This document shows, in pieces, positions 1 through 62,366 of a DNA stretch of 64,000 bases. How positions within the stretch are numbered: the stretch's first letter is position 1; every line of letters starts with the position of its first letter. The translations under genes were made by a program, and so were the position numbers. The stretch comes from Aphrocallistes beatrix (taxonomy: Eukaryota > Porifera > Hexactinellida > Sceptrulophora > Aphrocallistidae): positions 11,257,524 to 11,321,523 of the forward strand of contig OY725488.1 of the NCBI GenBank assembly GCA_963281255.1, in the 5' to 3' direction. Below the pieces are notes generated by a model that ran no database searches, had not been told where the DNA came from, and saw only the letters and a list, made by a program, of their open reading frames with translations.

Positions 1-1542
1 GGTGAAATATCTTGTCCCATTTTACTGTAGACACCTGCCGCTATCATAGTCTCTATTTTAGCTGGGACTTCATGCCCTTTTAAGGTAGCGCGTTTTGAAT
101 CAGCTGTGTTTGGAAATGGAATTATTTTGAAGTGCTGCTCCCATATAACACTACGTTGCGGGATAATAGTTGGGAGCGATTCGACTTGTTTATCGATCCA
201 ATCATCGTATAACTTATTGGAAGCATCGAAATTCTCGTCCCTCACTTTTACATGTAGTCTGAAAGCAACGACTTCATTCATTAAGAGCTGGAACACTAAG
301 TACACTTTGTATTCGCCTTCATGGGGCTTGAATATGACTGGAACCTCGAGGTACATATCCTTACCGATATCATGATCTATCAGACACCCTGTTTGGTTAT
401 CATAAAGCTTAGTGTGCAGTTGTCTTTTGTGCCCATATGATTCCCCGTGTGTCATCTGTCCGATTCTGAATTTGTTCTTATGGTTGTGGAGTATGATTGC
501 ATGTATCTGTTCTTCCTGACAGCTCGTAAACCTAAACACCCATTTTCTCTCTTCCTTACTCTGTATGCCGATCGTAATTTCTGATGGGGAATCACACTGC
601 AGGTTGATGTGTGTGGGCTGTTTCTTAAGAATTTGTCCGATGTTATTTTTAGCTATAAAACGTCTTAAACTAGTCATGAATTCCGGAACGTAATTCACTG
701 AAGGTTTGCCGTTCGAGAAAGGAGCAGGGTTTCTACCGGCACTAGTGAATTCCGGCGTACTTGGCCTTCGGTTCTTCTTCTTGGGCTTCTTCCTGGTTGG
801 AGTCGTAGGTGAGGAAAACTCTGGTCGTCTGGGGATACTATAGGATGCGTCTCTCCTCACGTCTCCCCCTTGACCCCAGGACTTATCTTCCAAGGGACTG
901 TCCGCCAACTCAGCTTCTCCTTGCATCTTCTCCGCCTCTAAGGCCTCGTTCCATGCCTCCCGTTCCTCCTCGGAATGCGCGAACTTGCACGCGTTGTGGG
1001 ACATACACCTCTTTCCCTTGGCTATTTCTTCGCACATCAAGTGTTCAGTGGTATGGATGGAGAGGTCGGGACGCTCTCTTATCGGACCACTAGCTCCTGC
1101 AGTAGGCAATAGCCTCATTTTCTCCGCTGTCCTGATATGTTCGATGCTATGCTTGTGAATGCTCTCATCCTTGCTGGAATCAAAATTAAGTTTGCACAAG
1201 TAACAGTAAAACTTTGGTTTATTCATGACTCTCTTTCCTTTCTCTGAATCCCATGCTTCCTTCTCGAGGTGATTGTGTGCGTGCACACAGTTCTGTCCTT
1301 TCGGACATTTCTTCTTGCCACCAATGGCAGAGCAGATGTTGTTCTTGCTCTTTAGAGTCCTCTCTCGGATTTGATACCATTTCTTATCCTGATGTGAGTA
1401 AGCGACGGAAATGCAATCCCAAACATTTTTGCAAGTAGGGCAAACTCTGTTTCTATTTTCTATATTACGAGTTGGGTTCATAAGGTCTTTAGTCTCTTCA
1501 AAACAATGACTGCACACTCTGTAAGTTGTTATAGAGCTCATT
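1..1542 (-). CDS. H1: 5' part of a divergent HELZ-like zinc-finger helicase gene, possible early frameshift
   Basis: This is the N-terminal third of a family member; the rest lies left of the window. The conserved start is the ATG at 1540-1542, giving MSSITTYRVCSHCF. A run of five T on the minus strand (plus 1500-1504) then puts the frame into a stop, where sister genes have one base fewer. From about 1499 the next frame is open to the window edge and carries the expected parts: the second half of the zinc ribbon (CPTC), CCCH finger C-X8-C-X5-C-X3-H (QNCVHAH), a C2H2 of C-X2-C-X12-H-X5-H type (YCYLC...HSIEH), a second CCCH (ACKFAHSEEE) and the start of the middle domain. Sequence identity to H2-H12 is clearly lower than theirs to each other, so it is an old branch. 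It is either a pseudogene, a gene using the later in-frame ATG (MNPTRN), or it holds a sequencing error in a homopolymer. Confidence 0.75.
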
Positions 1543-2929
1543 CTATGATAGATAAATATACTACATGGACATGTCAGGGATAAATTTTATGAATTATACT
1601 ACCTTGGCAAAGGCTTTTGCTGCCACGAAATTATCTATGTAAAATTAAAATACTATATAATATATTTGAAAGATTACATATTTGTGAGAGTACACAATGC
1701 TATAATCATTCTGCAACTAAAAGTATTGACTTGTCCACCTACATTTGTGACCACATGAATATGTTATACTTGTATTGGTGATAACTGATTACTGATGGGT
1801 ATCCATTAATAATTTATAGTTGAGAGTAAGAATTTAAGTTTAATATCTCAAGTAGTTCGAATGAGTGGGTGTAGTTAAATCTCTTTGAAATTAATTTTTT
1901 CTCAAAGATATGTCCACATTACGATTCCAATGTAAATTTCAAGGTGGTTCATTGTGGTCTAAAACTGTTATCCAGCTATTCTAGGTCAGGAAACTCAAGT
2001 GAAACAGGTCTAGAATGCTTTTCTCAAATCAAATGCATAACTACAATGTTATGTTCTAGCAATACAGCTTGGGACAAACGCCAATTTAAACATTACAAAT
2101 AAATTTGTCTCATCTAATTACTGACTAGAAGCTGCTAACATGAAGGTGAGAGAGTTTAGATATTGAGGGTGATGAGAAATTCCTAAACAATTTATAGTAC
2201 TGCTATATTAATTTCATGAATAATTGAAAACGCTACATATCTAATTAGAAAAAGCCCGAACAAATGGAGTTAGACCGTTGCTGTGTCTAGAGATTATTTG
2301 GATTGTTAGAATGCGATACAACACACAAACTAGTGAACAAAAATATATTAATATATTTTGCCTACCAGTGTATTGAGGCAGTGAGAAAATAGATTGAGAG
2401 AAGAGCCTAAGTTGTAGTGAAGTTAATCATTATGTGCACGTTAAACCAAAATGATAATTTGTAGGATAAGAATATCGCTATAGTATGTAATCAATTTAAA
2501 TTAATAAGTATATACTTATCCCACAGTGTTCAGTTTGAGTAATATTACAAGTATAATAATAGCTTATGAGACTAATCTTAGCTAAAGTATGACATTGTGG
2601 CTTCTTGAAATCATAACCCATTAATGAATGATAGGCTATTACATAATCAAATGATTATTGCTAAAGTTATGTGAAACTGTTTGCGAATGCATTTTAGCTG
2701 GGCTATTGAAGGCATAAATAAAACGTATTTCTGCCAGCACACAAGAATATCATTATATGTGAGTTCATAATACAGTAACATTATGATATACATACACTCG
2801 AGTGAAACTATCAAAATTATTCTGCTAATACATAACATAGATGATCTGTTTATTGGATTCACTATATAAACTACACAGAATATATCTTATTTTATAAAAT
2901 GAATTTTAGATTACACTGGAGTCACCCAA
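1543..2929. other. AT-rich spacer upstream of H1
   Basis: No gene is visible. The part at about 2385-2770 resembles 9545-9855 upstream of H2, with shared stretches such as GAGAAGAGCCTAAGTTGT and CTATTGAAGGC, so it looks like a 5' flank copied together with the genes. The rest is unremarkable AT-rich DNA. Confidence 0.5.
2385..2770 (-). repeat. Upstream block of H1, paralogous to 9545-9855
   Basis: Several collinear matches to the sequence upstream of H2 can be seen by eye, including GAGAAGAGCCTAAGTTGT and a segment around ACGTATTTCTGCC. It lies about 0.85-1.2 kb upstream of the H1 start, against about 1.0-1.35 kb for the H2 copy. It may be a distal promoter or just duplicated flank. Confidence 0.5.
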
Positions 2930-3590
2930 AATGGACACTAAACAGTGAATAATCAAATAGGTTCGAAATATGATATTCGAAATCTATGCCCTCAAAAACC
3001 CATCAACTGTTGCAATTTTCAAATGATCATTTTTTTGGAATGTGTTTACTTTATGATACCTCACATATGATGCAACTAGCATCAAAAAATGATGACTCAT
3101 CACTTTGTTATGACGTCATCATTACTCATCAAAATTTTAAAAATTGATAAATTTGTTGATTTTTCGTGCGATATAGATTACAACAGTAGGACAGACGTAG
3201 TATTTAGAGATGTTATCTCCCTTAACCAAATTAACCAATGTGACCCCAGGAGACCGAAGGGAGCCTCCAACGGACACAAAGTGTCCGCCAGCCGCGCAGT
3301 GCAAGCAAGCGAAGCGCGCTTGTATGTATATAAAAGTGTGATAATATACACATGACCTTTTTTTGTGATAACTTATACTATAAAAAATTCTATTATTATA
3401 TCGTCTTCTGTGGTATCGTATTACGAGAGTGAAGCCATATACATTATCGTCCAGTAAAAGTCTGAAAATTTTTTTTCCATTTTTTTGCAGAGGGGTGAAA
3501 ATTTCACTTAGATCTTTGAACTTGATTGCAGACAATCAATTCAGACAAACAAACAAACAAAAATCCTAGCATAACTCGTACAGAAAAAGA
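2930..3590 (+). mobile_element. Helitron/HINE-like repeat, copy M1
   Basis: A composite repeat. It starts with a unit also seen three times at 52735-53560 (ATATGATATTCGAAATCTA...). A block around TGATGACTCATCACTTTGTTATGACG follows, shared with the copies at 24402-25309 and 52082-52345. Next is a GC-rich end with the hairpin CAAGCGAAGCGCGCTTG at 3306-3322 (6-bp stem, 5-base loop). Further right, 3480-3575 matches 53780-53925 and on the minus strand reads ATGCTAGGATTTTTGTTTG, resembling the T/G-rich 5' ends of Helitrons. No coding capacity is seen. Exact borders are uncertain. Confidence 0.5.
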
Positions 3591-4500: not shown

Positions 4501-7500
4501 TTATTTGGAACGGAAAGAATTGTGGTATCTATGCTGCGGGAGCTGTTGGCGTACTATTCTTTGAGGTTGCATGTATTGCATTGGAGACTGGTTTATATCC
4601 GATGATGTGTTGATTAACTGAGTATTATTCACCTGAGTGCAATCAGGAACTAATGCTACATTCGTGGGAGGATTCTGTACACGAACTGGAGGTTGCATTT
4701 GTGTCAGAATCGCTTGCTGCTCCAAGAAACGCTGTCTTTCCAAATTCTCCAAAACAAGTTTTGCAAATGCCAGCTGGTCATTAATAGCAGCTGTTATCTC
4801 TGTGTTAGCATGAACTTGAATAAGTTCCTGCTGGCAGGCGGCAATGAATGAGTATACTAGGTTAGATTTAGTTTGGTATGTCTCACCATTATGATCGTCT
4901 GGTGAAAACAGATCCTCAATCGATTCAACTGAACTACACATTTCACTTGCTTCTGGTCGTTTCACGCTTTCATTTTCTTTTCTTTTTCCCTTTTGTTCGT
5001 ATTTCATATCACCAAAATCTTCAAAATCTTCTAAAGATTTGAAGAATCCCTGATTGCCTTCACAAGCATCTAAGTACTTACTCCACACATTGGAGCAATC
5101 TCCAATGTTAGTCACACAGTCAGAGTCTCCTATCACCACAACCCATCCTCTAGCTCGAGTTAGAATAGTATTGAACTGTGTGACGTCATCTAGTAGACCT
5201 AAGTCTAGCCTTTCTTCTAATGATATGTCTTTGGGTAGATTGGTCGTTGTTCTCACAGTGTTCACAATAATGAGATCATATTGTCTACCTTGAATAGTAT
5301 CAAAGTTTGTTACTTTTACTGTACAGTAGTTAACACAGCTATTGTTTTGACAGTATTGAGTTACGTATTCGAAGTGTCCTAGATCTCTGCATTTAGTAGT
5401 TTCCCTTCTTAAAGCATCGTTGATCAACTTCATTTGAGCTCTGTATGTTGATACCACTGTCATCCTGCTTACTCGCATGCCTAAATTGGCGAACTTTTTC
5501 AGCACTCTAATAGTCACCACAGCTTCTTCTTCGTTATAAAAAGAAGGGAAACCGTGGAGACGAGCCTCTTCTCCCTTGACGTGGAGGAAGGAAAGGGAAG
5601 GAAAGTTAAGACCTTGTAAACGAGGCGGATTAGCACACAGACTACCTTCATAGAACAACTCAGATAGAAAGTTTACTATCTCTTTGCTCGATCTGTAGTT
5701 CTCTGTTAGACTTATCTTGTATTGGTATGAACTATCTGGTTGGTATTCTGGTAATGTCTCGAAACGTTCTAACAGAGACTGATCTAAGTGGAATTGACGT
5801 CCTTGTTTGGAGAGAATCAGAGGGCGAGATTGTCTGACGTCACCTGTTAGAGCTATCTTAGTGTCTAATCCAGCTAGAGACAAAGATATGCAAGCCTCTG
5901 GCTCTATCAGCTGAGCTGCTTCGTCTATGAAAATATGAGTGAATATATTTTTTGCATTATCATGATCTTTTGGATCGATTAAGTTTGAACAACCGACAGT
6001 AGTAGCAACGATAATGGAACATTTCTCAAGTTCATGCAAAGGCAATACTTCATATAATCCTTCATGGAAATTAGTGTAATCTTTAACACTCCTATCATAA
6101 TGTAGAAGTTTCCTCTTTCGTGCAAAATGTCTAAAAAGTATGTGCTTTTTACTTTCCTTTTCGCGTAACATTCCAATTGTATCGAAATCCCGCTTAAGTA
6201 ATTCAACATGCAAGTTGGCACAGCTATTTGTTTTGGCTACGATTAGTATCCTGGAACCATGGAAATTCCGTGCAATCAGTTTAGCTGCTACTGACAATAT
6301 TTTCGTCTTACCACATCCAAAAGGGCCGCAAATAATGGTGGGAAAACTAACGTATTTAGGGTTGATGATGCTTAAGATGGCTTCTTGTTGTCTAATGGAG
6401 AACGTTTCAAATCGAACCAAGTTTAATAGATGGTCTTCGTCCCATTGGTCAGATACTCTGATTGGTCTCAAGGTTGGAAATAAAATTGCCTCACTTAATG
6501 CTTCCATAACTTCCAGTCGGTCCAGAGCTTGGTGCATCTTCTCATACTCGTCACGCTCCGGTGCAAATCTAACCATGGCCAGTCCTTCATTCCATTCACA
6601 GGCCCGAATTGCATCCATTGTGATTGGAAATACGAGATAGTCAAAGCCTATGTGTATACAACTACACTCGTAGGCGGTCTTTGTATTTTTCGGAATAATG
6701 TACGCTATATTAGGAGGTCGAAAACCGCGGTAACCCTCGAAGAGTTGATGCCTCAACTGAAATTTGATTAATCTACAATTGTTCTGAGCAGTTTCAACTC
6801 TCTCTTGATCGAAACCTTTGTCAATAATAATTTCCTTATGAACGGTGTCGACATTTATCTTGTAGTCAATAAGGTCATACTTCGAAAGTACCTTCTTATG
6901 TTCAAACTCTTCTAGGTATAATAGAGTATGGAATCGAGTGAAATATTTCTCCTTCACAATCATATCATTAATTCTATCGTAGAATCCTGTTTTAACCCTT
7001 TCTTCCATATTATCAGGCATCTTATGCTTATTCTGAAAGTATTTAGCATTAATTAGTTGATAACCTTGCTCCCAATTAATTGGGAGAATGTCCTGATATG
7101 AGGAGACTTTCTTCTTGGGAATTGGTTGAGTCTCAGCTTTAAAATTTTCAGTAACTTCTCGAAATCCTGCGCCCCTCAATCTAGCTCTAATATTCCTCGC
7201 TACCAACACACCATCCTTCCATTCTACTACAAAGTTAACTTGATGCTTTCCGATACTAGGCTTGAACATTACCACGACATCTATATACGTATCCTTAGTT
7301 ACTTCTTGATGTAACTGATAATAAGCCCGATTAGGAAGATAGGGAAATTTCACCTCGTTCTTCCTACCTCCCTCAAATTCCTTATACACTTCTCCTAGTT
7401 TGAACACATTCCGATGGTCGTAAAGGAGGATTCCCTGGATTCGATCTGGTTTGGATGACTTCATTCTCAACAACCATCTGAATTCGTTAGAAGAGTCTTC

Positions 7501-8508
7501 CAATGTCTGGGTAAGGTCCTTATCACAGAGAATCTCGATATGATCAGGTCTATTGTTAATGACATCCTCTATCCCTATGAAATCAATTTCCTCATACATC
7601 CTCTTCACATACTCGGACTCGCCCTCTATATTCTCAGTCACACGTGAATATTCCTCAGCTTTTCTTTTTAAAACTGGTTTCTTTTCAAATTTAGAAGACG
7701 GATACTTACAAGCACCGCTCTTGCTTTGATGGATCACAGACTCAGATCTGCTATTACTAGCATCGTTACTAGCATCGTTACTGGCAGAGTAGCTGGCATA
7801 ACTGCTGGAACTCTGAGGATTAGAATCAGGAGGTCTCTGCCCTTTCCTTTCTCGGTTTCTTAAAAGGATCTCTTCTTCCACCATGTGAGCCTGCTTCCAC
7901 ACCTTCAACTCTTCTTCTGAGTGTGCGTTTTTACACCCAGCTCCGTATCCACATCTCCCATGTCTGGTGAAATACTTGCACAGTTCATACGTATTCGTTT
8001 TAAAAGAAGGCTTAGGCCTTGTTCTTATAGGACCCGTGTACACCAGACTAGATCCAACATCTCGTAATATCCTCATACCTTCAGTCATAATCTCATGTTC
8101 ATTACTCACCATGTGTGTCTGCAAGTTGGGTATATCTTTGAAATCAATTCGACATATGACACAACTAATTTTGTGTGCACTTAGCGTCTTTCTTTTCATT
8201 TCTAAATCTTCTTCTTCGATCCAACATTGAAGTTCCAGTTTATTATGTGCATATCTACATTGAGGTCTATAGCACTTAGCACCGAATTGGTGATTACGAC
8301 AAAGCGAATGTTTACTATCAAACGACCTGGGACGAACTTCGTACCATCTCGTGTCCTGATTGTGGTATCCGACATTTATGCCTATCCATTTATTTCCACA
8401 GGTTCTACAGTTGCCATCTCGGTGGTAAAACTGTTCTAAAGTTGGCGGATTTCTGAATTTTGTAGAAATGAAACAGTCTCTGCAAACACGATTCGTCTCA
8501 GAATTCAT
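4501..8508 (-). CDS. H2: clade A zinc-finger SF1B helicase, HELZ/HELZ2-like, 1,335 aa
   Basis: Predicted ATP-dependent RNA helicase or RNP remodeller with its own RNA-binding fingers. N-terminal cassette: zinc ribbon C9/C12/C34/C37, CCCH C70-X8-C79-X4-C84-X3-H88, matrin-type C2H2 C116/C119/H132/H138, CCCH C177-X8-C186-X5-C192-X3-H196. Ser/Asn linker about 230-270, beta-rich domain about 300-460, and a HELZ/MOV10-type stalk (RFHTLLYLEEFEHKK). Helicase: Walker A GPFGCGKT 728-735, motif II DEAA 862-865, motif III GDVRQ 889-893, motif IV NYRSS from 937, motif V IQG 1072-1074, motif VI LTRARGW from 1116. One CQQE module at 1211-1260, Pro/Gln tail to the end. Motif V reads QGRQ where sisters have QGRE or QGME. 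The start is the family-conserved Met; a YAG (minus strand, at 8530) lies 22 bases upstream. Cytoplasmic or RNA-granule location is inferred from relatives. Confidence 0.88.
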   Translation of the reverse strand: MNSETNRVCRDCFISTKFRNPPTLEQFYHRDGNCRTCGNKWIGINVGYHNQDTRWYEVRPRSFDSKHSLCRNHQFGAKCYRPQCRYAHNKLELQCWIEEEDLEMKRKTLSAHKISCVICRIDFKDIPNLQTHMVSNEHEIMTEGMRILRDVGSSLVYTGPIRTRPKPSFKTNTYELCKYFTRHGRCGYGAGCKNAHSEEELKVWKQAHMVEEEILLRNRERKGQRPPDSNPQSSSSYASYSASNDASNDASNSRSESVIHQSKSGACKYPSSKFEKKPVLKRKAEEYSRVTENIEGESEYVKRMYEEIDFIGIEDVINNRPDHIEILCDKDLTQTLEDSSNEFRWLLRMKSSKPDRIQGILLYDHRNVFKLGEVYKEFEGGRKNEVKFPYLPNRAYYQLHQEVTKDTYIDVVVMFKPSIGKHQVNFVVEWKDGVLVARNIRARLRGAGFREVTENFKAETQPIPKKKVSSYQDILPINWEQGYQLINAKYFQNKHKMPDNMEERVKTGFYDRINDMIVKEKYFTRFHTLLYLEEFEHKKVLSKYDLIDYKINVDTVHKEIIIDKGFDQERVETAQNNCRLIKFQLRHQLFEGYRGFRPPNIAYIIPKNTKTAYECSCIHIGFDYLVFPITMDAIRACEWNEGLAMVRFAPERDEYEKMHQALDRLEVMEALSEAILFPTLRPIRVSDQWDEDHLLNLVRFETFSIRQQEAILSIINPKYVSFPTIICGPFGCGKTKILSVAAKLIARNFHGSRILIVAKTNSCANLHVELLKRDFDTIGMLREKESKKHILFRHFARKRKLLHYDRSVKDYTNFHEGLYEVLPLHELEKCSIIVATTVGCSNLIDPKDHDNAKNIFTHIFIDEAAQLIEPEACISLSLAGLDTKIALTGDVRQSRPLILSKQGRQFHLDQSLLERFETLPEYQPDSSYQYKISLTENYRSSKEIVNFLSELFYEGSLCANPPRLQGLNFPSLSFLHVKGEEARLHGFPSFYNEEEAVVTIRVLKKFANLGMRVSRMTVVSTYRAQMKLINDALRRETTKCRDLGHFEYVTQYCQNNSCVNYCTVKVTNFDTIQGRQYDLIIVNTVRTTTNLPKDISLEERLDLGLLDDVTQFNTILTRARGWVVVIGDSDCVTNIGDCSNVWSKYLDACEGNQGFFKSLEDFEDFGDMKYEQKGKRKENESVKRPEASEMCSSVESIEDLFSPDDHNGETYQTKSNLVYSFIAACQQELIQVHANTEITAAINDQLAFAKLVLENLERQRFLEQQAILTQMQPPVRVQNPPTNVALVPDCTQVNNTQLINTSSDINQSPMQYMQPQRIVRQQLPQHRYHNSFRSK

Positions 8509-35415: not shown

Positions 35416-36136
35416 TTAATTGAGAAGGATAGGATTATAGTAGCTATGCTGCAGGGGCTGTTGACGTGTCATTGGTTGCTGTTGCATGTATTGTGTTGGA
35501 GGCTGGATTATATCCGTTGAAGGGGTCTTTAACTGGAGAGCAGGTACTTGAGTGCAATCAGGAACTAATGTTACATTCATGAGATTAGAATTTTGTATGC
35601 TAACTGAAGGTTGCACTTCATACGAATTCGTGTGAAAAGAGGGCTTAGGCCTTGTCCTTATAGGCCCCGTGTACTCCAGACTAGATCCAACATCTCGTAA
35701 TATCCTCATACCTTCAGTCCTAGCCTCATGTTCATTACTTACCATGTGTGTCTGCAAGTTAGGTATATCTTTGAAATCAATTCAACATATGACACAACTA
35801 ATTTTGTGTGCACTTGGTCTCTTTTTTTTCATTATTAAATCTTCTTTTTCGACCCAATACTGAAGTTCCAGTTTATTATGTGTATATCTACAATGAGGTC
35901 TATATAACTTGCCGAATTGATGATCGCGGCAAAGCGAATGTTTACTGTCAAACTGTCTGGGACGAATCACGTACCATTTCCGGTCCTCATTGTGGTATCC
36001 GGCATTCATGCCTATCCACTTATTTCCACATGTTTTACAGTTGCCATCTCCATGGTAAGACTTTTAAGTTGGCGGATTTCTGAATCTTATAAAATTGAAA
36101 CAATCTTTGTAAATATGACGTCTCGTATGAATTCAT
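35416..36136 (-). pseudogene. r1: collapsed clade A helicase, N-terminus fused to C-terminal tail
   Basis: Starts MNSYET at 36136, loses frame within the zinc ribbon, and resumes at 36009 (MNAGYHNEDRKWY) through the first CCCH and the first half of the C2H2. It is then cut by a TGA in place of the Arg codon (35782-35784) after SCVIC. The last frame, 35416-35757, runs IDFKDIPNLQTH-like through RTRPKPSFHTNSYEV and joins directly to QPSVSIQN of the Pro/Gln tail. About 1,000 codons, including the second CCCH, the whole helicase and the CQQE module, were removed at a short shared sequence (AAGTG). It is a clade A copy stranded within the clade B half of the array. Confidence 0.85.
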
Positions 36137-44900: not shown

Positions 44901-46474
44901 AATGTTTCACTTGCTTTTTTAAAAGTCACCCCTTTCACCTTAACGTTAACTTCCCTAGCTACTAGTCCACCATCCTTGCACTCCACCACAATGTAGACTT
45001 GATGCTGTCCTATTTTAGGTTTGAATAATAAATTTATGTCGATGAACGTAGTACTGTCTATTTCCTGTTGCAAGTGATAGTAAGTTCTATTTGGAATATC
45101 GGGAAATTTTATTTCGCTATATTTACTCTTTTCTACACCCTTATAGACTCCTTTTAGTTTGAACATGTTACGATCTTCATATAATGTAATACCATGTAAG
45201 AACTCACGTTTAGTTGATTTTATCCTGAACACCCATTTGAACTCTTGAGGCAACTCATCCATTGTCTGTTCTAGATGATTGTCACAAAGTATCTCGATAT
45301 GTTTCGGCCTATTCATTACGACATCCTCTATTCTTATGAGCTGAATCTCCTCTTGCACCCTCAAATAATACTCTGAATCTTCTTCGATTTTCTGAGGTTT
45401 ACTGGAAATCACATTAGAAGCCGTTTTGTTTTTTTGTTTTTTCTTCTTACTAGAGGATGGATTCTTACAAGCTCCATCCTGACTCTGAGAAGAGAAGGAT
45501 TGAGATCTGCTACTACTGGTGTTACTACTTGTGCTTGAAGTAGATTGATATCTACCGCTACTATGATAACCGCTGGAGGTAGATTGGGATTTGTTGCCAC
45601 TATGATAACTACTGGAGGTAGATTGGGATTTATTGCCACTAGAATAACTATTTGGGGTAGATTGAGATCTGTTACTACTAGAATAACTACTTGGGGGAGA
45701 TTGAGATCTACTGCCATTAGAATAACCACTTGCATTGGCACTGGCGTGACTGCTGGAACTCTGGGACCTATATCTGGGAAAATTTTGGCCTCCTCTGTCT
45801 CTTCTGTCTCTATTGTCTCTGCTTCTTTCGCGGTTTTCTTCTTCCGCTTTCTGAGCTTGTTTCCATACTTTTAACTCTTCGTCTGAATGTGCGTACTTAC
45901 ATCCAGTAGAAAAGTCGCACCTCCCATGCCTCATGAAACTTCGACACACTTCATACGTAACTTTGCTAAAGGGGACTTTAGGCCTTGCCCTTATGGGACC
46001 CTTGTACTGGAGACTAGAGCCTACTTCAGGCAGTATCTTCATGCCTTTAGTTCTAGCCACGTGATCTCTACTTTCTAGATGTGTTACTAAGTTGGGAACA
46101 TCTCTGAACTCGACTTTACATATGACACAGCGAATTTTATCAGAACTAGGTCTCTTCATGTCCTCCAACCACTTCTCCTCCTCTATCCACAGCTCTAGCT
46201 CAAGTTGGTTGTGAGCATACCGACACTTCTCACCTCGATAACATCTGTCATCCTTAACGTAAGGACAGAATATGTGTTCGCTGTAGAACAGCCTGCGACG
46301 AACTGGATAATACCTTCTATCTGGGTCATAGTAGCCGACGTTTATACCCAACCATTCTCCTCCACAGGAGTCACAAGTACCTCGATATCTGGACTTTGCT
46401 AAGATCGGACGATTTCTAGTTTTCGTCTCATTGAAACAGTACTCGCAAACGCGATGTGTCTCATATCGATTCAT
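41991..46474 (-). pseudogene. H9: clade B zinc-finger SF1B helicase with one C-terminal frameshift
   Basis: The first frame (42617-46474, starting MNRYETHRVCEYCF) is 1,285 residues and holds the entire zinc cassette, a long Ser-rich linker (repeats like GNKSQSTSSSYHS) and a complete helicase core. Walker A is GSFGCGKT at 793-800 (Pro to Ser at a variable position, GxxGxGKT kept); DEAA is at 926-929. At about 42663 one base is missing just before the first CQQE module (PPEDH-frameshift); the rest continues in 41991-42656 with two modules and the Pro/Gln tail. The core could still be made as a protein truncated right after the helicase, so this may be a functional tail-less gene, not a dead one. 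Promoter with TATA and E-box upstream; YAG at 46487. Confidence 0.83.
45540..45745 (-). repeat. Ser-rich linker repeats in H9
   Basis: Degenerate 39-bp units encode SYSSGNKSQSTS-like repeats, homologous to the H8 minisatellite but more diverged. Confidence 0.75.
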
Positions 46475-47047: not shown

Positions 47048-47182
47048 CTGAGAGTACAATGCAGATAGGTTTATTGGCAAGATTAATTATGTAAAGACTT
47101 ACTGAAATAATCCTTTCTGAATGTTTATTTCAGATATCACATTTAGAAAAACCTAGAATTAATATTTCCATATGTATTAAAA

Positions 47183-47403
47183 CAGGATGGAAACCTGCAA
47201 CCCCACCCTGACTCTAAAAAGAGGATAGAAATAAAACTAGGAGTCTGTTGTGAGCATATCAACACCACTCACTTCGATCATATATATCAGTTATGCTGAA
47301 ATGACATGGTTTATTTTAACTGTAATACTTCTTAAGACAAATTGTGAAACAGTACCTCAGTGAAACAGTCCCTTTGCACGCGAGATGTCTCGTATCGACT
47401 CAT
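47183..47403 (-). pseudogene. r3: deleted and decayed 5' end of a clade B helicase
   Basis: Starts MSRYETSRVQRDCF at 47403 and is out of frame within 25 codons. Nucleotide similarity to H5/H7/H10 reappears for the first CCCH (CATTTCAGCATAACTGATAT, ...ATATGCTCACAACAGACT on the minus strand), then jumps to the SQGGACRYPSS segment near the end of the linker. The C2H2 and second CCCH are deleted. It sits 265 bases from the H10 stop, exactly as r2 does from H9. Confidence 0.7.
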
Positions 47404-47667: not shown

Positions 47668-50600
47668 TTATTTGGGATAGAGAGAAAAAGACTGTTGACG
47701 TGTCATTGGTTTCGGTTGCATGTATTGTGTTGGAGGCTGGATTATATCCGTTGAAGGGGTCTTTAACTGGGGAGCAGCCACTTGAGTGCAATCAGGAACT
47801 AATGTTACATTCATGAGATGAGGATTTTGTATACTAACTGAAGGTTGCACTTGTGTTAGGGTCGCTTGTCGCTCAAAGTGATGCTGTCTCTCCAAATTCT
47901 CCAGGACAAGTTTAGCAAATCTCAGCTGATCATTAATAGCAGCTGATATTTCTGTACTGGCATGAACCTGACTTATCTCTTGTTGGCAGGCGGCAATGAA
48001 TGCTTGTAAAAGGTTAAATTTATTCTGGTATGTCCCATCAGTATGCTCCTCTGGTGAAAAGATGCCCTCAAATGATCCAGCTGAGTTTCCTGTTCTTTTT
48101 CTGTCAGCTGGTTTAGCTCTCTTAACTTCCACTTCCTCTCTATCCTTGATCTTTTTAACTTCATAAGTTTGTCTTTCCAGATTCTCACAGGCGATTCTCG
48201 CAAAATTCAGCTGATTATAAATAGCCGCACTGATATCAGTGCTAGCATGAGGCTGAGTAATCTCTTTTTGGCAGATGTTTATGAATACGTGCAGAGCATT
48301 GAACTTAGTCTGATACATCTCAGTATGAACTTCAGGTGGAGCCATTTCTCCACCGGCTCCGGTAGAACCAGTTTTTCTATCTTTTTCGTTCATTTTTGAA
48401 TTCTTTCTCTCTGCTTTCTTTCCTCTTTCTTTGGACCTTTTAACTTCAAAATCTTCCAAACACTTGAAGAACCCTTGATTTCCTTCACAAGCATCTATGT
48501 ACTTACTCCACACATTGGAGCAATTTCCAATGCTGGTCAGACAATCTGAGTCTCCTATCACCACAACCCATCCTCTAGCTCGAGTCAGAGTAGTATTGAA
48601 CTGTCTAACGTCATCTAGTAGACCTAGGTCCAACCTTTCTTCCAAAGATATGTCTTTCTGAACATCAGTGGTTGTTCTCACAGTATTAACGACAATGAGA
48701 TCGTATTCCATACCGTCGATGCTTTCTAAGTTCCTAACATCGATCGTGCGTTTATTGACACAGTTCCTATCTCGACAGGACCGGTTCCTGTATTTGAAAT
48801 GGCCTAGGTTTCTACAATTCACTTCTTCTTCTCTTAAATAATCATTTATCAACCTGACTTGAGATTTGTAGGTTGTCAAGACTGCCATGTTTTCAACTCG
48901 AACACCTAAATTCGCAAACTTTTGCAGTACTCCAACAGTTAACTCAGCTTCTTCTTCGTTATAGAAGGAAGGGAAACCGTGGAGACGTCGCTCTTCTCCT
49001 TTCACGTGGAGGAAGGAAAGAGATGGGAAGTTAGCAGGACCTTCTAAAGTGGGTGGATTAGATCGCAGACTTCCTTCATAAAACAATTCTGAAAGAAAGC
49101 AAACTATCTCCACGCTTGATCTGAAGTTTTCTAACAGAGTGATATTGCATTTGTAAGGACTCTGAGGTTGGTACTCTGGTAAAGTCTCAAAACGTTCTAA
49201 CAGAGAATTATCTAGATTAAATTGACGTCCGTGTTTGGAGAGAATCAGAGGACGAGACTGTCTGACGTCACCTGCTAGAGCTATCTTAGTGTCTAACCCA
49301 GCTAGAGACAGAGGTATGCAAGCCTCTGGCTCTATCAATTGATCTGCATGGTCAAGAAAGATGTGAGTGAACAGATTCTTTATACAATCACGATCTTTTG
49401 GTAAGATTAAACTCGAGCTGGCTACAGTAGTTGTCACCACTATATAGAACATCTCTTAAGTTCTTTCAATGGCAGTCGTTTATATGCTCCATCTTGTATA
49501 TTTGTGAATGTATGTGTCTTCTTGTTCCAATGTGTATTCCTCGTAGCAGCAAAATGTCGGTATAACTTCGGCCTTCGACTTCGCTTGTCGTCGAGCATTT
49601 CAATTCCATCGAAATATTCAGCTAGCAAATCTACGTACAAGTTTGCACAACTGTTCGCTCTGGTTGCAATAAGAATTCTAGAATTATGGAATGTCAATGC
49701 AATCAATTTAGCCGCAATTGCTAGCGTTTTCGTCTTACCACAGCCAAATGGACCACAAATAATGGTGGGGATGCTAGTGTATTTAGATTTGATGATACTA
49801 TGCACGGCTTCCTTCTGTGTGGTGGTTAGAATTTCATAATTAAGTAAGCGGAGTAGATGGTGTTCGTCCCATTGTTCAGGCTTTTGTATCTGTCTCAATG
49901 TTGGAAATAGAATTGTATCTCTCAACGGTTTTATATCGTGCAGAGCTTGGTGCATCTTCTCATACTCGTCACGCGCCGGAGTAAACCTAACCATCGCCAA
50001 ACCTCCACTCTCTTCACAAGCTTCAACCGTGTCGATTGTGATTGAAAATATTAGATAGTCAATACCTGTGCGTACACAGTAGCAGCACTCGTAGGCGTTT
50101 TTTGAGTGATTCGGGATTATGTAGGCTATTCTGGGTGGACGCAAAGTATGGTAACCCTCAAAGAGTTGATGATTCAAATTAAATCTGATAAATCTGCGAT
50201 TTTCTTCAGCAGTTTCCTGTTTTTCTTGAGCATTATCGTTTTCAATAAGCATTTCTTTATAAACTGTTTCGTGAGTTATTTTATAGTCCAACAGATCATA
50301 TTTGCTTAGAAGTTTCTTATGTTGGTACTCTTCCAGATGTAATATGGTGTGGAATCTAGTTGTATAACTATCTTTAACGATTCTATCATTTATCATATTA
50401 AAAAATCCTCCTTTAATCCTATCCTCTATGATATCAGGAATTTTATGCCTATTATCCAGGGAGCTCCCAATTGACTGGCAGAATGTCCTGAACTGAGGAA
50501 ACCTTCTTGGGGATTGGAACAGTCTCAGATTTGACTGTTTCACCCGCTTCCTTAAATGTTATTCCTTTCACTTTAACCTTAACTTCTCTAGTTACTAGTC

Positions 50601-51819
50601 CACCATCCATACACTCTATCACGAAGTAGACTCGATGCTGTCCTATTCGAGGCTTAAATACCAGAGTGACGTCGATATACGTTGCACAATTTATCTCCTG
50701 TTGCAACTGATAGCAATTTCTATTCGGAACATAGGGGAAATTTAGTTCACTATATTTACCCTCCTTCACACCCTTATGAACTCCTTCTAGCTTGAACATG
50801 TTACGATCTTCGTATAACAGAATGCCGTGTAAGATCTCGCGTTTAGATGATTTTATTCTGAACACCCATTTGAATTCTTTTGAAGACTCCTCCTCCATTG
50901 TTTGCTCCAAATCATTGTTACAAAGTATCTCGACATGGTTAGGCCTATTCTTTACGACATCCTCGATTCTTATGAACTGAATCTCCCCTTGCACCCTCCA
51001 ATAATATTCTGAATCATTTTCTATTTTTTCGGGTTCACTGGAGCTCATTTCAGATTTTCTCTTGGAATCTCGATTCCTATTACTAGAGGATGAATATCTA
51101 CAAGCTCCACCCTGACTCTGAGAAGAGAAGGATTGAGAGGCGTAACTGCTGGAAATATGGGGTTCTCTTCTCTCTATAACTTCTTTCTCTGCTATCTGAG
51201 CCTCCATCCATACCTTTAGCTCTTCGTCTGTATGTGCATGCTTACACTCAGTGGAATCTTCGCACCTCCCATGCTTCATGAAACTTCGACACAATTCATA
51301 CGTATCTTTGCTAAAGGGGACTTTAGGCCTTGCCCTTATGGGACCCTTGTACTGGAGACTAGAGCCTACTTCAGGTAGTATCTTCATGACTTTGGTTCTA
51401 GCCACGTGATCTCTACTTTCTAGATGTGTTTCTAGGTTGGGAACATCTCTGAACTCGACTTTACAGATGACACAGCGAATCTTTTCAGAACTAGGTCTCT
51501 TCATCTCTGTAAACATTTTCTCCTGCTCTATCCACACTTCTAGCTCAAGTCTGTTGTGAGCATAACGACACCGCTCACCTTGTTCACATATTTCAGTTCT
51601 ACTGAAATGACATAGTCTATTTTCAGTGTGTTCCTTTTTCCGACGAACTTCGTAATATTTGTTATCTGGGTGATAGTAGCCGACATGTATCCCTACCCAT
51701 TCCCCTCCACATGTGATACAAATGCCTCTTTGTTTTAACTTTTCTAAAGTTGGACGATTTATTGTCTTTGTTCGATCGAAACATGCCTTGCACACGCGAT
51801 AGGTCTCGTGTCGACTCAT
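47668..51819 (-). pseudogene. H10: clade B zinc-finger helicase with two breaks, motif II DHAD
   Basis: Start set at MSRHETYRVCKACF (51817-51819), six codons inside the open frame. The first frame (to 50452) covers the zinc cassette, a short linker and the middle domain, and ends after PVNWE. About 26 bases are missing near 50455-50468 relative to H7, shifting the frame. The second frame (49440 upward) covers the stalk to motif Ia. A two-base TA repeat expansion near 49441-49444 shifts it again. The third frame (47668-49452) holds motif II onward, two CQQE modules and a shortened Pro/Gln tail. Motif II reads DHAD (49342-49353), so the catalytic Glu is absent, as in H7. Probably a pseudogene. 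Confidence 0.82.
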
Positions 51820-54204: not shown

Positions 54205-54345
54205 TCGTAGTTCTACTCGCATCCTCTCTACCTTGTAGAAGTTATTCCAAGTCGTAAACCTCTCTGAACTCTACATCACATATGATACAGCGAATCATAA
54301 TCGAGCCTCTCCACTTATTTTCGTACATGTCAAATTGAGAAAGTA
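54205..54345 (-). pseudogene. r4: isolated zinc-finger relic of a helicase
   Basis: On the minus strand MYENKWRGSIMIRCIICDVE and FREVYDLE followed by a stop correspond to the KIRCVICKVEFRDVPNLETH C2H2 region of H6/H9/H11. Nothing of the flanking gene is readable. About 45 codons survive. Confidence 0.6.
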
Positions 54346-54754
54346 ATGGTTCTACATTTATATTTGTTGTATAGTGTGCTCATTTATACATAAGAATTGT
54401 AATGTCATCCTTGGAGTTATAAAATTCTCAGAATTCACAAAAATAATTGATAGAATCGATTAGAAATTTACGTATTGCATTTAAGTATTGCACGTTTCGT
54501 GATTCATTATAACTTGTGTGGATAAGCATTTATAGAGTTGCACCCAGGTTAAACTTTAAACTCTTTACCATATAAGGAGTACCCAAATTTTGTGCAATTT
54601 GGCCCAAAATATATCCTATGTTTACTACACCTCTGCTCTAGGATAGTAATAATTCTGACTAGTCCGAAATAGAAATTGTATGTCTTAACAAGAAAAGAAA
54701 CAACTTTGCAATTAACTTTACAAAAAGAAAAAATGAAATGAGGGCATACAAAAA

Positions 54755-54933: not shown

Positions 54934-57900
54934 TTATATCCGTCGAGGGCTACGTTGTTTCTTCAAATTATCCAAAGCTATTTTTGCAAATGTTAGCTGG
55001 TCCTTAATAGCAGCTGTTATTGCTCTGCTTCCATTAGTCTCTGTAATCTCCTGTTGGCATGTGGTTATGAATAGTTGTAGAGAATTGAATTTAGTCCGGT
55101 ATGACTCATTAAAATGATCTTCTGGTGGAAATACGTCTTCGAACGATCTAACTGAATCGCCTGTTATTTTGCTCTCAGTTGGTTTAGTTGTTTTCCCTTC
55201 TACCTTCTCTCTATTCTTGCACCTTTTAAGCTCGAAAGATTGCTTTTCCAAATTATCGAGAGCGATTCTTGCATATGTCAGCTGATCATTGATAACTGCA
55301 GCGATATAAGAGCTAGTATGAACTTGCGTAATTTCCTGTTGGCAGGTCGTTATAAATAGATACAGAGCATTGAACTTGGTTTGGTGCAATGCATTTGGTA
55401 TGGTGGCCTCCTCAATAGGATCTTCAGGTGGGGCCATACCTTTAGCCCCTCCAATAGGACTAGTTTCTTTTGTTCCGGTTGTTCTCGCGGTTTTTGCCTC
55501 TGTTCCAGTTGTTCTCGAGGTTTTTGTATATGTTTTCTTTTCCTTTCCTTTGGATTTTGGAACTTCAAAATCTTCCAATTCTTCTAACGATTGGAAGAAT
55601 CCCCTATTTCCTTTACAAGCACCTACGTATTTACTCCACACATTAGAACACTCCCCAATGTTAGTCACACAATCTGAATCTCCTATCACCACAACCCATC
55701 CTCTAGCCCGAGTTAGAATAGTATTGAACTGTTTAACATCATCTAGTAGACCTAGGTCTAACCTTTCTTCCAATGATATGTCCTTAGGAACATCAGTGGT
55801 CGTTCTTATAGTATTAACGACAATGAGATCGTATTCCATTCCTTGAATGCCTTCTAGGTTCTTAACAGCAATCGTGCGTTTATTAACACAGTTTCTCTTT
55901 TGACAGAATTGGTCCTTGTATCGGAAATGGCCTTGATTCATACACTTCGTTTCTTCATCTCTCAAATAATCGTATATCAACCTGACTTGAGATTTGTAGG
56001 TCGTCAGGACGGCCATGTTTTCAACTCGAACACCTAAATTCGCGAACTTTTGCAATACTCCAACAGTTAGCTCTCAGCTTCTTCTTCGTTATAGAAAGAA
56101 GGGAACCCGTGGAGACGTCTCTCTTCTCCTTTCACGTGGAGGAAAGAAAGAGATGGGAAGTCAGCAGGACCTTCTAAAGTGGGTGGATTAGAACGCAGAC
56201 TTCCTTCATAGAACAGTTCTGAAAGAAAGCAAACTATCTCCACGCTTGACCTGAAATTTTCTAACAGAGTGATATTACATTTGTAAGGACTCTGAGGTTG
56301 GTACTCTGGTAAAGTCTCGAAACGTTCTAACAGAGAATTATCTAAGTTAAACTGACGTCCGTGCTTGGAGAGAATCAGAGGTCGAGATTGTCTGACGTCA
56401 CCTGCTAGTGCTATCTTAGTGTCTAATCCAGCTAGAGACAAAGGTATGCAAGCCTCTGGCTCTATCAGCTGAGCTGCTTCGTCAATGAAGATGTGAGTGA
56501 ATAGATTCTTTGTACAGTCACGATCTTTCGGATGGATTAAACTGGAACTTGCTACAGTAGTGGTCACTACGATGGAACACCTCTCAAGTTCATCCAATGG
56601 CAGTCTTTCATATGCTCCATCTCGTATATTTGTGAATTTATGTAACTTCTTCTTCCAATGTATATTCCTCGTAGCAGCAAAATGTCGGTATAACTTCGGC
56701 CTTCGACTTCGCTTCTCGTAGAGCATATCAATTCCATCGAAATATTCAGATAGCAAATCTATGTACAAGTTCGCACAACTCTTTGTTTTGGTTACAATGA
56801 GAATTCTAGAATTATGAAATTTCAATGCAATCAATCTAGCCGCAATTGCTAAAGTTTTCGTCTTACCACATCCGAAGGGACCGCAAATAATAGTAGGGAT
56901 GCTAGTGTATTTGGAGTTGATGATACTATACACGGCTTTCTTCTGCGCGGTGGTTAGAGTTTCATCTTCAAGCAAGCTGAGTAGATAGTCTTCATCCCAG
57001 TGACTAGGTGTGTTTATATGTCTCAAAGATGGAAATAAAATAGCTTCTTTTAATGGTTTCATATCGTCTAGAGCTTGGCGCATTTTCTCATACTCGTCAC
57101 GTTCTGGCATAAACCTAACCATCGCTAATCCTCCACTCCTTTCACAGGTCTCAATCGTGTCTATCGTGACTGAAAATATGAGGTAATCAATACCTGTACG
57201 TACACAGTAACATTCATATGCATTTTTTGTATTTTTCGGGATTATGTAGGCTATTTTAGGAGGTCGGAAAGCACGGTAACCCTCAAAGAGTTGATGTTTC
57301 AGATTAAATCGGATAAAATAATGATTGTGTTTTGCAGTTTCCATTCTCTCCTGACCATAGTCGTTTTCAAGAGGAATTTCTTGATCAACTGTTTTGTAGG
57401 ATATTTCATAGTCATAGAGGTCATACTTTATTAGAGATTTCCTGTGCTCGTACTCTTCAAGCTGTAACAAAGTTTGGAATCTGATCCCGTAACTACTTTT
57501 AACGATTTTATCATTGATCTTATCAAAAAATCCTTCTTTAAGCCTTTCCTCCATATTTTCTGGTATTCTATGCTTATTCAGAGAACCTTTATTGTTAAAA
57601 AGTTGGAATTTGTGTTTCCAATTGATTGAAAGAATATCCTGAGCTGGAGGGACTTTTTTCTTTAGAGGTGGTTTGGTCTTATCTATAAATGATTCATTTG
57701 CGCCTTGAAAAGTCACCCCTTTCACCTTAACCTTGACTTCCCTAGCTACTAGTCCACCATCCATACACTCAACCACGAAGTAGACTCGATGCTGTCCTAT
57801 TTGAGACTTAAATACAAGAGTGACGTCGATATACGCTGCACGCTCTATCTCCTGTTGCAACTCATAGCAAATTCTATTAGGAGTATCGGGAAACTTTATT

Positions 57901-58967
57901 TCGCTCCAGATACCACCTTCCACACCCTTAAGCACTCTTTCCAGCTTGAACATGTTGCGATCGTCGTACAACGTAATACCATGTAAGAGCTCACGTTTAG
58001 ATGATTTTATCCTGAACACCCATTTAAACTCTTTGGTAGACCCTTCCATTGTTTGTCTTAGATTATTATTGCAAAGTATTTCGATATGTTCTGGCATATT
58101 TTTAACAATATCCTTTATCTTTTGATCCTCAATTTCTCCTTGCACTTGCCAAAAATATTCGGACTCTCCTTCTACCTCCTCGGATTCATGCTGATTCTTA
58201 GAGGAAGAAAAAGGTTTAGATTTGCTGCTAGAATGACTGCTACTAGGATTAGCATTGCCACTGGCATAACTCCTGGAACTCTGTGACTTAGATCTAGACG
58301 AACTTTGCCCTCTCCTTTTCTTACGGCTTTCTTCTTCCGCTATCTGAGCTTGTATCCATACATTTAACTCTTCCTCTGAATGTGCGTGCTTACATCCAAA
58401 AAGATAGTCACATCTCCCATGCTTCATGAAATGTCTGCACAGTTCATAGGTATCCAGACCAAAAGGGACTTTAGGTCTTTCCCTTATGGGACCCTTATAC
58501 AGCAGACTAGACCCGACTTCAGGTAGTATCTTCATGCTGGTAGTTCTACTCGCATGTTCGTTACTTCGTAGATGTGTTTGCAAATTGTAACCATCCTCGA
58601 ACTCGACTCTACATATGATACAATGAATTTTATTCGAACTAGGGTTCGTCATCTCTTCGAGCAGTTTATCTTCCTCTAGCCAAACCTCTAGCTCAAGTAT
58701 GTTGTGAGCATATCGACACCGATCTCCTCGATCACATACATCAGTTATGCTGGAATTACAAAGTATGTTCTCGCTATAATACAGTTTGCGGCGAATTTCG
58801 TAATACGTGTTATCTGGCTGATAGTAGCCTACCTTCATTCCCATCCATTCCCCTCCACATGAATTACAAGTGCCTTGTGTTTTTGTCTCTGCTAAGATTG
58901 GCTTCCCGCTTGTTTTCGTTTGATTGAAACAGTACTTGCATACGCGATATGTCTTGTATCTGCTCAT
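54934..58967 (-). pseudogene. H11: clade B zinc-finger SF1B helicase with one frameshift and lost tail
   Basis: The first frame, 56067-58967 (966 residues, MSRYKTYRVCKYCF start), holds the four zinc motifs, a short Ser/Lys linker, the middle domain, the H6/H9-type stalk (NKHRIPENMEERLKEGFFDK) and helicase motifs I-IV. Walker A is at 696-703 and DEAA at 829-832. A two-base AG expansion near 56070-56074 within EEEAELTVG ends the frame. The second frame (54934-56055) carries motifs V and VI (IQGME, LTRARGW) and two CQQE modules, then runs out of frame into the old tail, whose codons (STDIIRPP..., PPQHSYYN) remain readable at 54853-54955. Without motifs V-VI the first product would not be an active helicase. 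E-box promoter block lies upstream. Confidence 0.82.
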
Positions 58968-60602: not shown

Positions 60603-62366
60603 TTAAAGAGTTTTTTGCTGCTCCAAGTAACGTTGTCTCTCCAAATTCCCTAAAGATATTTTCACAAATGTCAATTGTTCATTAATAGCAGCTGCTATCT
60701 CTGTATTATCATGAACCTGAGTTATCTCTTGCTGGCAGATAGTTACGAATCTGTGTAGAGAGTTAGACTTATTCTGATATGTCTCTTCAGTTTGATTCTG
60801 AAGTGGAACCACGTCTTCAGACGGTCTAATTGAGTTTCTTGTCCTACTTGACTCAGCTGGATTAGTTTTTTGAACCAATGAATTTTCTCTCTTTTCACGT
60901 TTTTTAACTTCAAAAGTTTGTTTTTCCAAATTCTCAAGTGCGATTTTCGCAAATGTCAACTGATCATGAATAGCCGTAATTATCTCTGTGTTATCATGAA
61001 CCTGAGTTATCTCTTGCTGGCAGATAGCTACGAATCTGTGTAGAGAGTTAGACTTGTTCTGATATGTCCCTTCAGTATAACCCTGAAGTGGAACCACGTC
61101 TTCGAACGGTCTAATTGAGTTTCCTGTCTTACTTGACTCAACTGGATTAGCCTTTCGAACCATTGACTTTTCTCTATCTTTACAAGTGACCCCTTTCACC
61201 TTAACGTTAACTTTCCTTGCTACTAGTCCACCATCCATGCACTCCACTACAATGTAGACTTGATGCTGTCCTATTTTAGGTTTGAATGCTAAAGTGACAT
61301 CGATGAACGTAGTACTATTTATTTCCTGTTGCAACTGATAGCAAGTTCTATTAGGAATATAGGGGAACTTTATCTCGCAATATTTACCACCTTCCACACC
61401 CTTATGCACTCCTTCTAGCTTAAACACGTTTCGATCTTCGTATAACGTAATTCCCTGTAAGATCTCTTGTTTAGATGATTTTATCCTGAACACCCATTTA
61501 AACTCTTTAGGAGACTCATCCATTATCTGTTCCAGATGATTGTTACAAAGTATCTCGATATGTTTAGGCCTATTCTTAACAACATCCTCTATTGTCAAGA
61601 ATTGTATTTCTCCTTGCACTCCCCTATAATATTCTGAATCTCCTTCTATTTGATTCGGTATATCCCGTCTTTGAGATTTAAATCTCGAATGACTGCTGGT
61701 GTCAGTAGCTATACCGCTTGAGTAGCTACTGGAAATCGGAGGCTTAGCTCTAGAAGAATTCTCCTCAGCCATCTGAGCTTGTTTCCATACTTTTAGCTCT
61801 TCCTTTGAATGTGCGTACTTACATCCAGTAGAAAAGTCGCACCTCCCATGCCTCATGAAATTTCGACACATTTCATACGTATCTTTGCTAAAAGGGACTT
61901 TAGGCCTTGCCCTTATGGGGCCCTTGTACTGGCCGTTAGTTCTAGTCACGTGATCTCTGCTTTGTAGATGTGTTTCTAGGTTGGGAACATCTCTGAACTC
62001 GATTTTACAAATGACACAGCGAATCTTATTCGTAATAACGTTTTTCATTTCTGTGAGCAGTTTTTCCTCCTCCTCTATCCACAGCTCTAGCTCAAGTCTG
62101 TTGTGAGCATATCGACACTTCTCACCTTGATTACATTTATCTTTAATGTTCAAACGACACAGTTCATTCTCGCTGTTATACTGCCTGCGACGAACTTGAT
62201 AATACTTTTTATCTGGATTATAGTATCCGATGTTTATGCCCACCCATTCGCCTCCACATGAGATACAAGTGCCTAGATAACTTGACTCTTCTAAGACTGG
62301 AGGATTACTAGTCTTTGTCAGATTGAAACAGTACTTGCACACGGGATAAGTCTCGTATTGACTCAT
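60603..62366 (-). CDS. H12: helicase-less paralog, zinc cassette plus two CQQE modules, 587 aa
   Basis: An uninterrupted ORF starting MSQYETYPVCKYCF. Zinc ribbon C10/C13/C34/C37, CCCH (CRLNIKDKCNQGEKCRYAH), C2H2 (CVICKIEF...HLQSRDH), CCCH (CRNFMRHGRCDFSTGCKYAH) and the beta-rich middle domain are intact. At residue about 395 (plus 61183-61187) the chain passes from VNVKVKGVT straight to CKDREKSMVRK, the spacer before the CQQE modules. The stalk, Walker A, DEAA and all other helicase motifs, roughly 700-800 residues, are absent in frame. Two nearly identical halves of about 97 residues, each spacer plus CQQE module, finish the protein; no Pro/Gln tail. It could bind RNA and partners without unwinding, for instance as a competitor of full-length copies. 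That is inference; a deletion product without function is the alternative, though all ligands are kept. Confidence 0.85.
   Translation of the reverse strand: MSQYETYPVCKYCFNLTKTSNPPVLEESSYLGTCISCGGEWVGINIGYYNPDKKYYQVRRRQYNSENELCRLNIKDKCNQGEKCRYAHNRLELELWIEEEEKLLTEMKNVITNKIRCVICKIEFRDVPNLETHLQSRDHVTRTNGQYKGPIRARPKVPFSKDTYEMCRNFMRHGRCDFSTGCKYAHSKEELKVWKQAQMAEENSSRAKPPISSSYSSGIATDTSSHSRFKSQRRDIPNQIEGDSEYYRGVQGEIQFLTIEDVVKNRPKHIEILCNNHLEQIMDESPKEFKWVFRIKSSKQEILQGITLYEDRNVFKLEGVHKGVEGGKYCEIKFPYIPNRTCYQLQQEINSTTFIDVTLAFKPKIGQHQVYIVVECMDGGLVARKVNVKVKGVTCKDREKSMVRKANPVESSKTGNSIRPFEDVVPLQGYTEGTYQNKSNSLHRFVAICQQEITQVHDNTEIITAIHDQLTFAKIALENLEKQTFEVKKREKRENSLVQKTNPAESSRTRNSIRPSEDVVPLQNQTEETYQNKSNSLHRFVTICQQEITQVHDNTEIAAAINEQLTFVKISLGNLERQRYLEQQKTL

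What the first reader, a model, noticed from the sequence alone, without database searches (positions are those of the whole stretch)
1..62366. Tandem array of at least 16 intronless HELZ-like zinc-finger helicase loci on one strand
Twelve substantial copies and four relics of one protein family fill 62 kb head to tail. Hallmarks seen: stalk LLYLEEFEHKK, RFAPERDEYEKMHQALD, GPFGCGKT, DEAA, ENYRSS...SELFYEGSL, and a final IGDCSNVW block; these match HELZ/HELZ2, which vertebrates have as single, multi-exon genes. Single-exon structure suggests a retroposed founder that was then duplicated. HELZ2 and its MOV10/ZNFX1 relatives act on viral or transposon RNA, and turnover by duplication and decay is typical of defence genes, so an expanded RNA-sensing or RNA-restricting repertoire is a reasonable hypothesis.
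Basis: partly seen in the sequence, partly recalled or inferred. Interest (0 to 1): 0.82.

Follow-up and report, generated by a model that had tools for sequence, protein, structure and literature searches.

The report
Glass-sponge cluster of HELZ-like RNA helicases
An animal that is most likely a glass sponge carries a head-to-tail cluster of single-frame genes for zinc-finger RNA helicases related to HELZ, about half of them broken, a pattern seen in fast-turning defence genes although no defence role has been shown.

Summary
The window lies in an unnamed 100.5 Mb animal genome; the nearest named relative found is the glass sponge Oopsacas minuta. On the minus strand I count 15 family loci (not 16): one of an older subfamily (c01), six full-length intact copies, one with a broken tail, three with frame breaks, one with a large internal deletion, three relics. 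The proteins (four zinc modules, S/R/Q-rich linker, UPF1-like helicase, repeat-containing tail) group with a HELZ-like and a demosponge protein apart from MOV10 (support 100/98); no HELZ2 sequence was available, and HELZ2's RNB domain and second helicase are absent. The single-frame state is older than the array: the five family members outside it in this genome, and many ZNFX1-like and Piwi genes, are also single-frame, so a retroposed founder of this array is not needed. Copies are under purifying selection (dN/dS 0.20-0.36); no positive selection was seen. A role in RNA defence is plausible but untested.

The parts
1..1541 (-). c01, first 513 codons of a complete 1404-aa gene of an older subfamily (with C12b/C12c); continues left of the window
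4504..8508 (-). c02, intact copy, clade A, 1335 aa
10556..14533 (-). c03, intact copy, clade A, 1326 aa
15721..19716 (-). c04, intact copy, clade A, 1332 aa
20277..24299 (-). c05, intact copy, clade B, 1341 aa; a unit of the C-terminal tail is present twice
25482..29405 (-). c06, intact frame, clade B body with clade A-like C-terminus; one Cys of the first CCCH finger missing
30978..35105 (-). c07, clade B copy with frame breaks
35420..36136 (-). relic: clade A N-terminus joined to a clade A-type C-terminus, middle lost
36574..40893 (-). c09, intact copy, clade B, 1440 aa, with 39-base repeats in the linker
42216..46474 (-). c10, clade B; zinc module and helicase intact (42620-46474, 1285 aa), frame break before the C-terminal tail
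47175..47403 (-). relic, mainly of the zinc-finger region
47671..51819 (-). c12, clade B copy with two frame breaks
54208..54475 (-). relic of the zinc-finger region
54940..58967 (-). c14, clade B copy with a frame break inside the helicase and a rearranged tail
60606..62366 (-). c15, one frame joining about the first 470 and the last 155 codons; helicase lost; 285-base repeat in the tail

Best explanation
The array is a lineage-specific tandem expansion, by birth and death, of a HELZ-group RNA helicase in what is most likely a glass sponge. Shown by sequence: a module of four zinc-binding motifs (Cys4, CCCH, C2H2, CCCH), a low-complexity linker, a UPF1-like SF1 helicase with its main motifs kept, and a repeat-containing C-terminal tail; intact copies are constrained, others decay, and copies exchange sequence, most clearly in the tail of c06. 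Inferred: the zinc module binds RNA, the helicase uses ATP to move along it or strip proteins from it, and linker and tail recruit partners. Most likely role, inferred only: recognising and silencing unwanted RNA such as viral or transposon RNA, the copies differing most in linker and tail, then in the zinc module.
Against: No expression, induction or binding data. No positive selection: sliding windows with pN above pS are 0 of 60 (clade A), 1 of 60 (close clade B pairs, equal to three decimals) and 2 of 58 (c01/C12b/C12c). HELZ, the better-studied relative, is linked to general mRNA decay, translation and R-loop removal (listing). No HELZ2 sequence was at hand. Mov-10_helical is weak: 8 of 18 proteins at E <= 1, but only c05 among the seven array copies, E 0.66. 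The zinc-module model is poor (pTM 0.43) and finds no fold match at E <= 0.001.
Confidence: 0.55

Rival explanations
1. The copies do a HELZ-like housekeeping job (mRNA decay or translation control); the expansion gives dosage or stage-specific paralogues, not defence.
For: HELZ recruits CCR4-NOT and causes decay of bound mRNA (PMC6769256, passages). Purifying selection in all 21 pairs of array copies.
Against: Array genes turn over: 8 of the 14 loci other than c01 are broken, truncated or relic. A separate, divergent HELZ-like gene, C12a, has seven relatives in the search (P0018-P0024; their copy number per genome was not seen) and could already do a conserved job. A loose hand-made PAM2 pattern matches 0 of 12 proteins, and HELZ's long C-terminal half is absent.
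Confidence: 0.25
2. The array is mostly duplication noise in a region prone to tandem duplication; the copies are redundant and on their way out.
For: Both flanks hold other tandem single-frame families, of membrane-protein type. Aphrocallistes vastus has other tandem clusters of single-exon genes (PMC10282587, passages). 8 of the 14 loci other than c01 are damaged.
Against: Six full-length frames persist at pairwise dS 0.29-1.40 with dN/dS 0.21-0.36.
Confidence: 0.15
3. The helicases serve germline or piRNA silencing, as MOV10L1 does in other animals (recalled), and the expansion tracks transposon control in the germline.
For: The genome has many Piwi-domain genes: 24 matches, 11 of them covering nearly the whole domain in one frame, four of these in tandem. 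MOV10, Armitage and SDE3 act in post-transcriptional silencing (PMC6769256, passage).
Against: The family is on the HELZ side, not the MOV10 side, of the core tree. No link between the array and Piwi genes was tested.
Confidence: 0.15

Closest known systems
HELZ (helicase with zinc finger)
   Same: CCCH finger N-terminal to a UPF1-like SF1 helicase with a DEAA motif (PMC6769256, passages); groups with the HELZ-like protein P0036 (its HELZ label is recalled).
   Different: Array proteins have four zinc-binding motifs instead of one CCCH finger, no long C-terminal half, no match to a loose PAM2 pattern, and are multi-copy.
HELZ2
   Same: Zinc fingers with a HELZ-type helicase (recalled).
   Different: HELZ2 has two helicase domains flanking an RNB exonuclease domain (PMC9839780, passage); the seven array copies show one AAA_12 stretch each and no RNB family at E <= 1.
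Demosponge protein Em0017g107a (P0035)
   Same: Cys4 motif, CCCH fingers, C2H2-like motif, helicase; 51% identity over 92% of the 111-residue query. Species (Ephydatia muelleri) recalled from the Em prefix.
   Different: One extra CCCH finger; copy number and exon structure not seen.
MOV10
   Same: UPF1-like SF1 helicase; the Mov-10_helical profile matches weakly.
   Different: MOV10 forms its own clade (100/100) and the 13-row HELZ-like clade excludes it, 100/98.
AIG1-domain tandem cluster of Aphrocallistes vastus
   Same: Glass-sponge tandem cluster of mostly single-exon, possibly immune genes (PMC10282587, passages).
   Different: An unrelated protein family.

Membership tests
HELZ/HELZ2 group | Helicase core groups with HELZ-like proteins apart from MOV10, ZNFX1-like proteins and UPF1 | tested here: met
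   13 of 26 rows are one side of a branch, 100/98. ownL017 and ownL022 were dropped because no P-loop pattern matched. HELZ label of P0036 recalled; no HELZ2 row; P0036 is a long branch (1.42).
HELZ/HELZ2 group | CCCH zinc finger N-terminal to the helicase | tested here: met
   Pattern and aligned ligands. By profile weaker: zf-CCCH at E <= 1 in 11 of 18 proteins and in 5 of 7 array copies, above its cut-off in c10 only.
HELZ (strict) | PAM2 motif and long low-complexity C-terminal half | tested here: inconclusive
   0 of 12 proteins match a loose hand-made PAM2 pattern; the proteins are 1206-1440 aa with a short tail.
HELZ2 (strict) | RNB domain and second helicase domain | tested here: not met
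   7 of 7 array copies have one AAA_12 stretch and no RNB family at E <= 1. Feature from PMC9839780 (passage).
MOV10 | Groups with MOV10 in the core tree | tested here: not met
ZNFX1 | Groups with ZNFX1-like proteins of the same genome | tested here: not met
   ownL007, ownL021 and ownL023 lie apart. ZNFX1 is the best PDB match of L021; L007 and L023 match L021.
UPF1-like SF1 helicase with its motifs | Motifs I, II, III, V, VI present | tested here: met
   by my own patterns: I, II and VI in 7 of 7 array copies; III and V in 6 of 7 (c02 departs in both). Activity itself is not testable here.
Antiviral or transposon-restricting factor | Induction by, or binding to, viral or transposon RNA | not testable with these tools
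   No expression or binding data.

The most novel reading that the evidence does not exclude
Glass sponges keep a diversifying repertoire of single-frame RNA-recognising helicases in which the zinc-finger reader, linker and tail diverge between paralogues while gene conversion keeps resetting a shared segment of the motor: an RNA-sensing counterpart of NLR-type receptor clusters, beside multi-copy ZNFX1-like and Piwi genes in the same genome.
Probability: 0.3. Interest if true: 0.8.

Novelty: new variant of a known kind. Interest (0 to 1): 0.55.

Why it matters
The HELZ and HELZ2 work I saw passages of is in human and fly cells. A tandem, fast-turning, mosaic set in a glass sponge would suggest that HELZ-group helicases can act as a diversified RNA-recognition system, and would give natural variants to map which part reads RNA. 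I saw no paper on such an array, judged from the listed titles and starts of abstracts only: sponge + HELZ (10 of 17 papers listed), MOV10/HELZ/ZNFX1/gene family expansion (11 of 11), sponge/innate immunity/gene expansion/ZNFX1 (12 of 95), gene conversion + tandem + antiviral + helicase + invertebrate (8 of 8), glass sponge + helicase + tandem duplication (0 papers). The two glass-sponge genome papers do not contain the word helicase in their main text. Only open-licence papers were searched.

Tried and rejected
Retroposed founder of the array: set aside, since the five other family loci in the genome (C3, C12a, C12b, C12c, c01) are single-frame too. Viral or mobile origin: nothing points to it; 0 Rfam matches at the gathering threshold and 0 tRNA genes in the window; coronavirus helicases appear only as distant fold matches. 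Positive selection: not found by counting. HELZ, HELZ2 or MOV10 chains: not among the sequence hits in the PDB, which does not show that none exists. Zinc module: best PDB sequence matches are CCCH fingers, E 0.0012 and 0.0018 (tristetraprolin), on the last finger; the fold search gave nothing at E <= 0.001. RIG-I C-terminal domain: 0 matches, but no control genome rang either, so uninformative. NCBIfam gave only hits below their cut-offs. Conversion in the window is weak: of 21 pairs only c03-c09 survives correction (p 0.0003, times 21 = 0.006; next c04-c06, 0.003, times 21 = 0.063). In one search the tail tree has low support for placing c06 with clade A (64-67% bootstrap); the case rests on distances and dS. 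The AU tests were chosen, so they are post hoc, and in its segment tree the contig-wise groupings are not starred (87/84 and 92/89). Dropped rows: the tree left out P0001-P0005 and P0014 (the window's own) and P0016 (a fungal protein); one search left out C12a, P0035 and P0036; one search left out ownL017 and ownL022; one search used 18 of the 23 rows aligned.
Full report
What is there. The window (38% GC) lies at G000:C1:11257524-11321523 in a genome of 100.5 Mb in 28 contigs. On the minus strand I find 15 loci of one protein family: c01, cut by the window edge but complete in the genome (1404 aa); six intact full-length genes (c02-c06, c09); c10, whose zinc module and helicase are intact but whose tail is out of frame; c07, c12 and c14 with frame breaks; c15 with the helicase deleted; and three relics. 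Genome-wide the same search finds four further loci of the family, C3, C12a and the pair C12b/C12c (such counts are lower bounds).

How the array arose. In a tree of 21 proteins the seven array copies form one clade, 100/100, split into A (c02-c04) and B (c05, c06, c09, c10), each 100/100; c01 instead joins C12b/C12c, 100/100. Whole-gene dS is 0.29-0.37 inside clade A, 0.47-0.71 inside B and 1.25-1.42 between them. The five family members of this genome outside the array clade (c01, C3, C12a, C12b, C12c) are single-frame as well. So are the ZNFX1-like genes (seven loci at 45% identity or more, counting the query) and 11 near full-domain Piwi matches, and single-exon genes are common in the glass sponge Aphrocallistes vastus (PMC10282587, passages). 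The single-frame state is thus older than the array and does not by itself argue for a retroposed founder. In c02, c03 and c04 a TTTACTATTT(G/A)TAG stretch shortly before the ATG resembles a splice acceptor; a 5' untranslated intron, or trans-splicing as reported in A. vastus, is possible.

Exchange between copies. In the window, c06 has a clade B body, but its tail differs from c03 and c04 by 0.18 per site and from c05, c09 and c10 by 0.39, and C-terminal dS against c03, c04 and c02 falls to 0.45, 0.49 and 0.76 from whole-gene values of 1.26-1.29. The tail tree agrees only with low support. In other genomes exchange is seen inside the helicase. Four pairs whose longest-contig lengths are equal, and which therefore probably share a contig, are near identical over P0009 residues 851-930, from just behind the DEAAQ motif to just behind ENFRS: P0008/P0033 98% (43-86% in the other eight segments), P0009/P0032 100% (56-77%), P0015/P0031 100% (35-89%), P0007/P0029 95% (57-80%, three segments missing). 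Over the first 760 residues the first three pairs show 35-62%. Against a simple reading by contig, P0009/P0031, P0015/P0032 and P0015/P0009, with different contig lengths, are also 99% there, so these two contigs may belong to one species; and P0012/P0008 is 95%. For comparison P0031/P0033, an orthologue-like pair, has 71-83% in the first 760 residues and 88% in the segment. In the body (residues 1-760) P0031 with P0033 is a 100/100 pair and a P0008+P0033 pair is rejected (p-AU 3.2e-43); in residues 830-1000 the P0031+P0033 pair is rejected (p-AU 0.006), while P0008+P0033 (87/84) and P0009+P0015+P0031+P0032 (92/89) are in the best tree without strong support. These tests were chosen after seeing and rest on protein only. 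In the window, silent identity between clades A and B is 0.52 at residues 845-935 and 0.48 at 1020-1140, but also 0.50 at 600-680 and 0.45 at 500-600, against 0.27-0.37 in the other eight segments; one of 21 pairs (c03-c09, residues 873-898) has a significant run after correction. I read this as local gene conversion, well supported in the relatives' proteins and only weakly in this stretch of the window's genes.

Selection. Whole-gene dN/dS is 0.20-0.36 in all 21 pairs of the seven array copies (c10 includes a few out-of-frame tail codons). Windows with pN above pS are 0 of 60, 1 of 60 (equal to three decimals) and 2 of 58 for three groups. So the copies are constrained and there is no sign of positive selection at this resolution. 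Linker and C-terminus have the highest dN between clades A and B.

Function. HELZ2 reduces LINE-1 RNA and needs its helicase activity (PMC9839780, abstract and passages); HELZ recruits CCR4-NOT and causes decay of bound mRNA (PMC6769256, passages); two 2026 papers give HELZ an R-loop role (titles and abstract starts only). The array could serve RNA defence, general mRNA control or germline silencing. Turnover, divergence of linker, tail and zinc module, and coexistence with multi-copy ZNFX1-like and Piwi genes lean toward defence, but none of this is direct evidence. I give the identity as a HELZ-group helicase expansion about 0.9 and the defence role about 0.45; the joint statement is scored 0.55 because its role part is marked as inferred.

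Noticed in passing
L009, L010 (left of the window), L011, L012 (right), window 63233-64000: Single-frame proteins of about 310-420 aa with mostly 5-7 hydrophobic stretches lie in tandem on both sides of the array, apparently one family on each side; five scanned against Pfam, none above a cut-off.
   Followed up: partly
G000 C16:895436, C1:371953, C7:4959274, C7:4972476, C11:3422211, C4:1839139, C9:3917209: Seven ZNFX1-like loci (query included) at 45% identity or more, all in long single frames (ZNFX1 is the best PDB match of the C16 one).
   Followed up: partly
G000 C13:444877-459986 and elsewhere: Piwi-domain genes: 24 matches, 11 covering nearly the whole domain in one frame, four of them in tandem on C13.
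   Followed up: no
L014 (C12a): A divergent HELZ-like gene with one CCCH-like finger and seven relatives, each with a different longest contig; a candidate for a conserved single HELZ gene, copy number not shown.
   Followed up: partly
L016 (C12c): Recent copy of C12b (dS 0.07) with GKS in place of GKT in the P-loop and a Cys-to-Ser change in the Cys4 motif.
   Followed up: no
window just above 8508, 14533 and 19716: A conserved TTTACTATTT(G/A)TAG stretch shortly before the ATG of c02, c03 and c04 looks like a splice acceptor.
   Followed up: no
window 3056-3334, 24425-25314, 52187-52665: Inverted repeats of 45-97 bases shared between these three intergenic stretches, perhaps a small mobile element.
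   Followed up: no
P0034: An Oopsacas protein named methyltransferase-like 2A carries methyltransferase domains in front of this helicase; probably a merged gene model.
   Followed up: no
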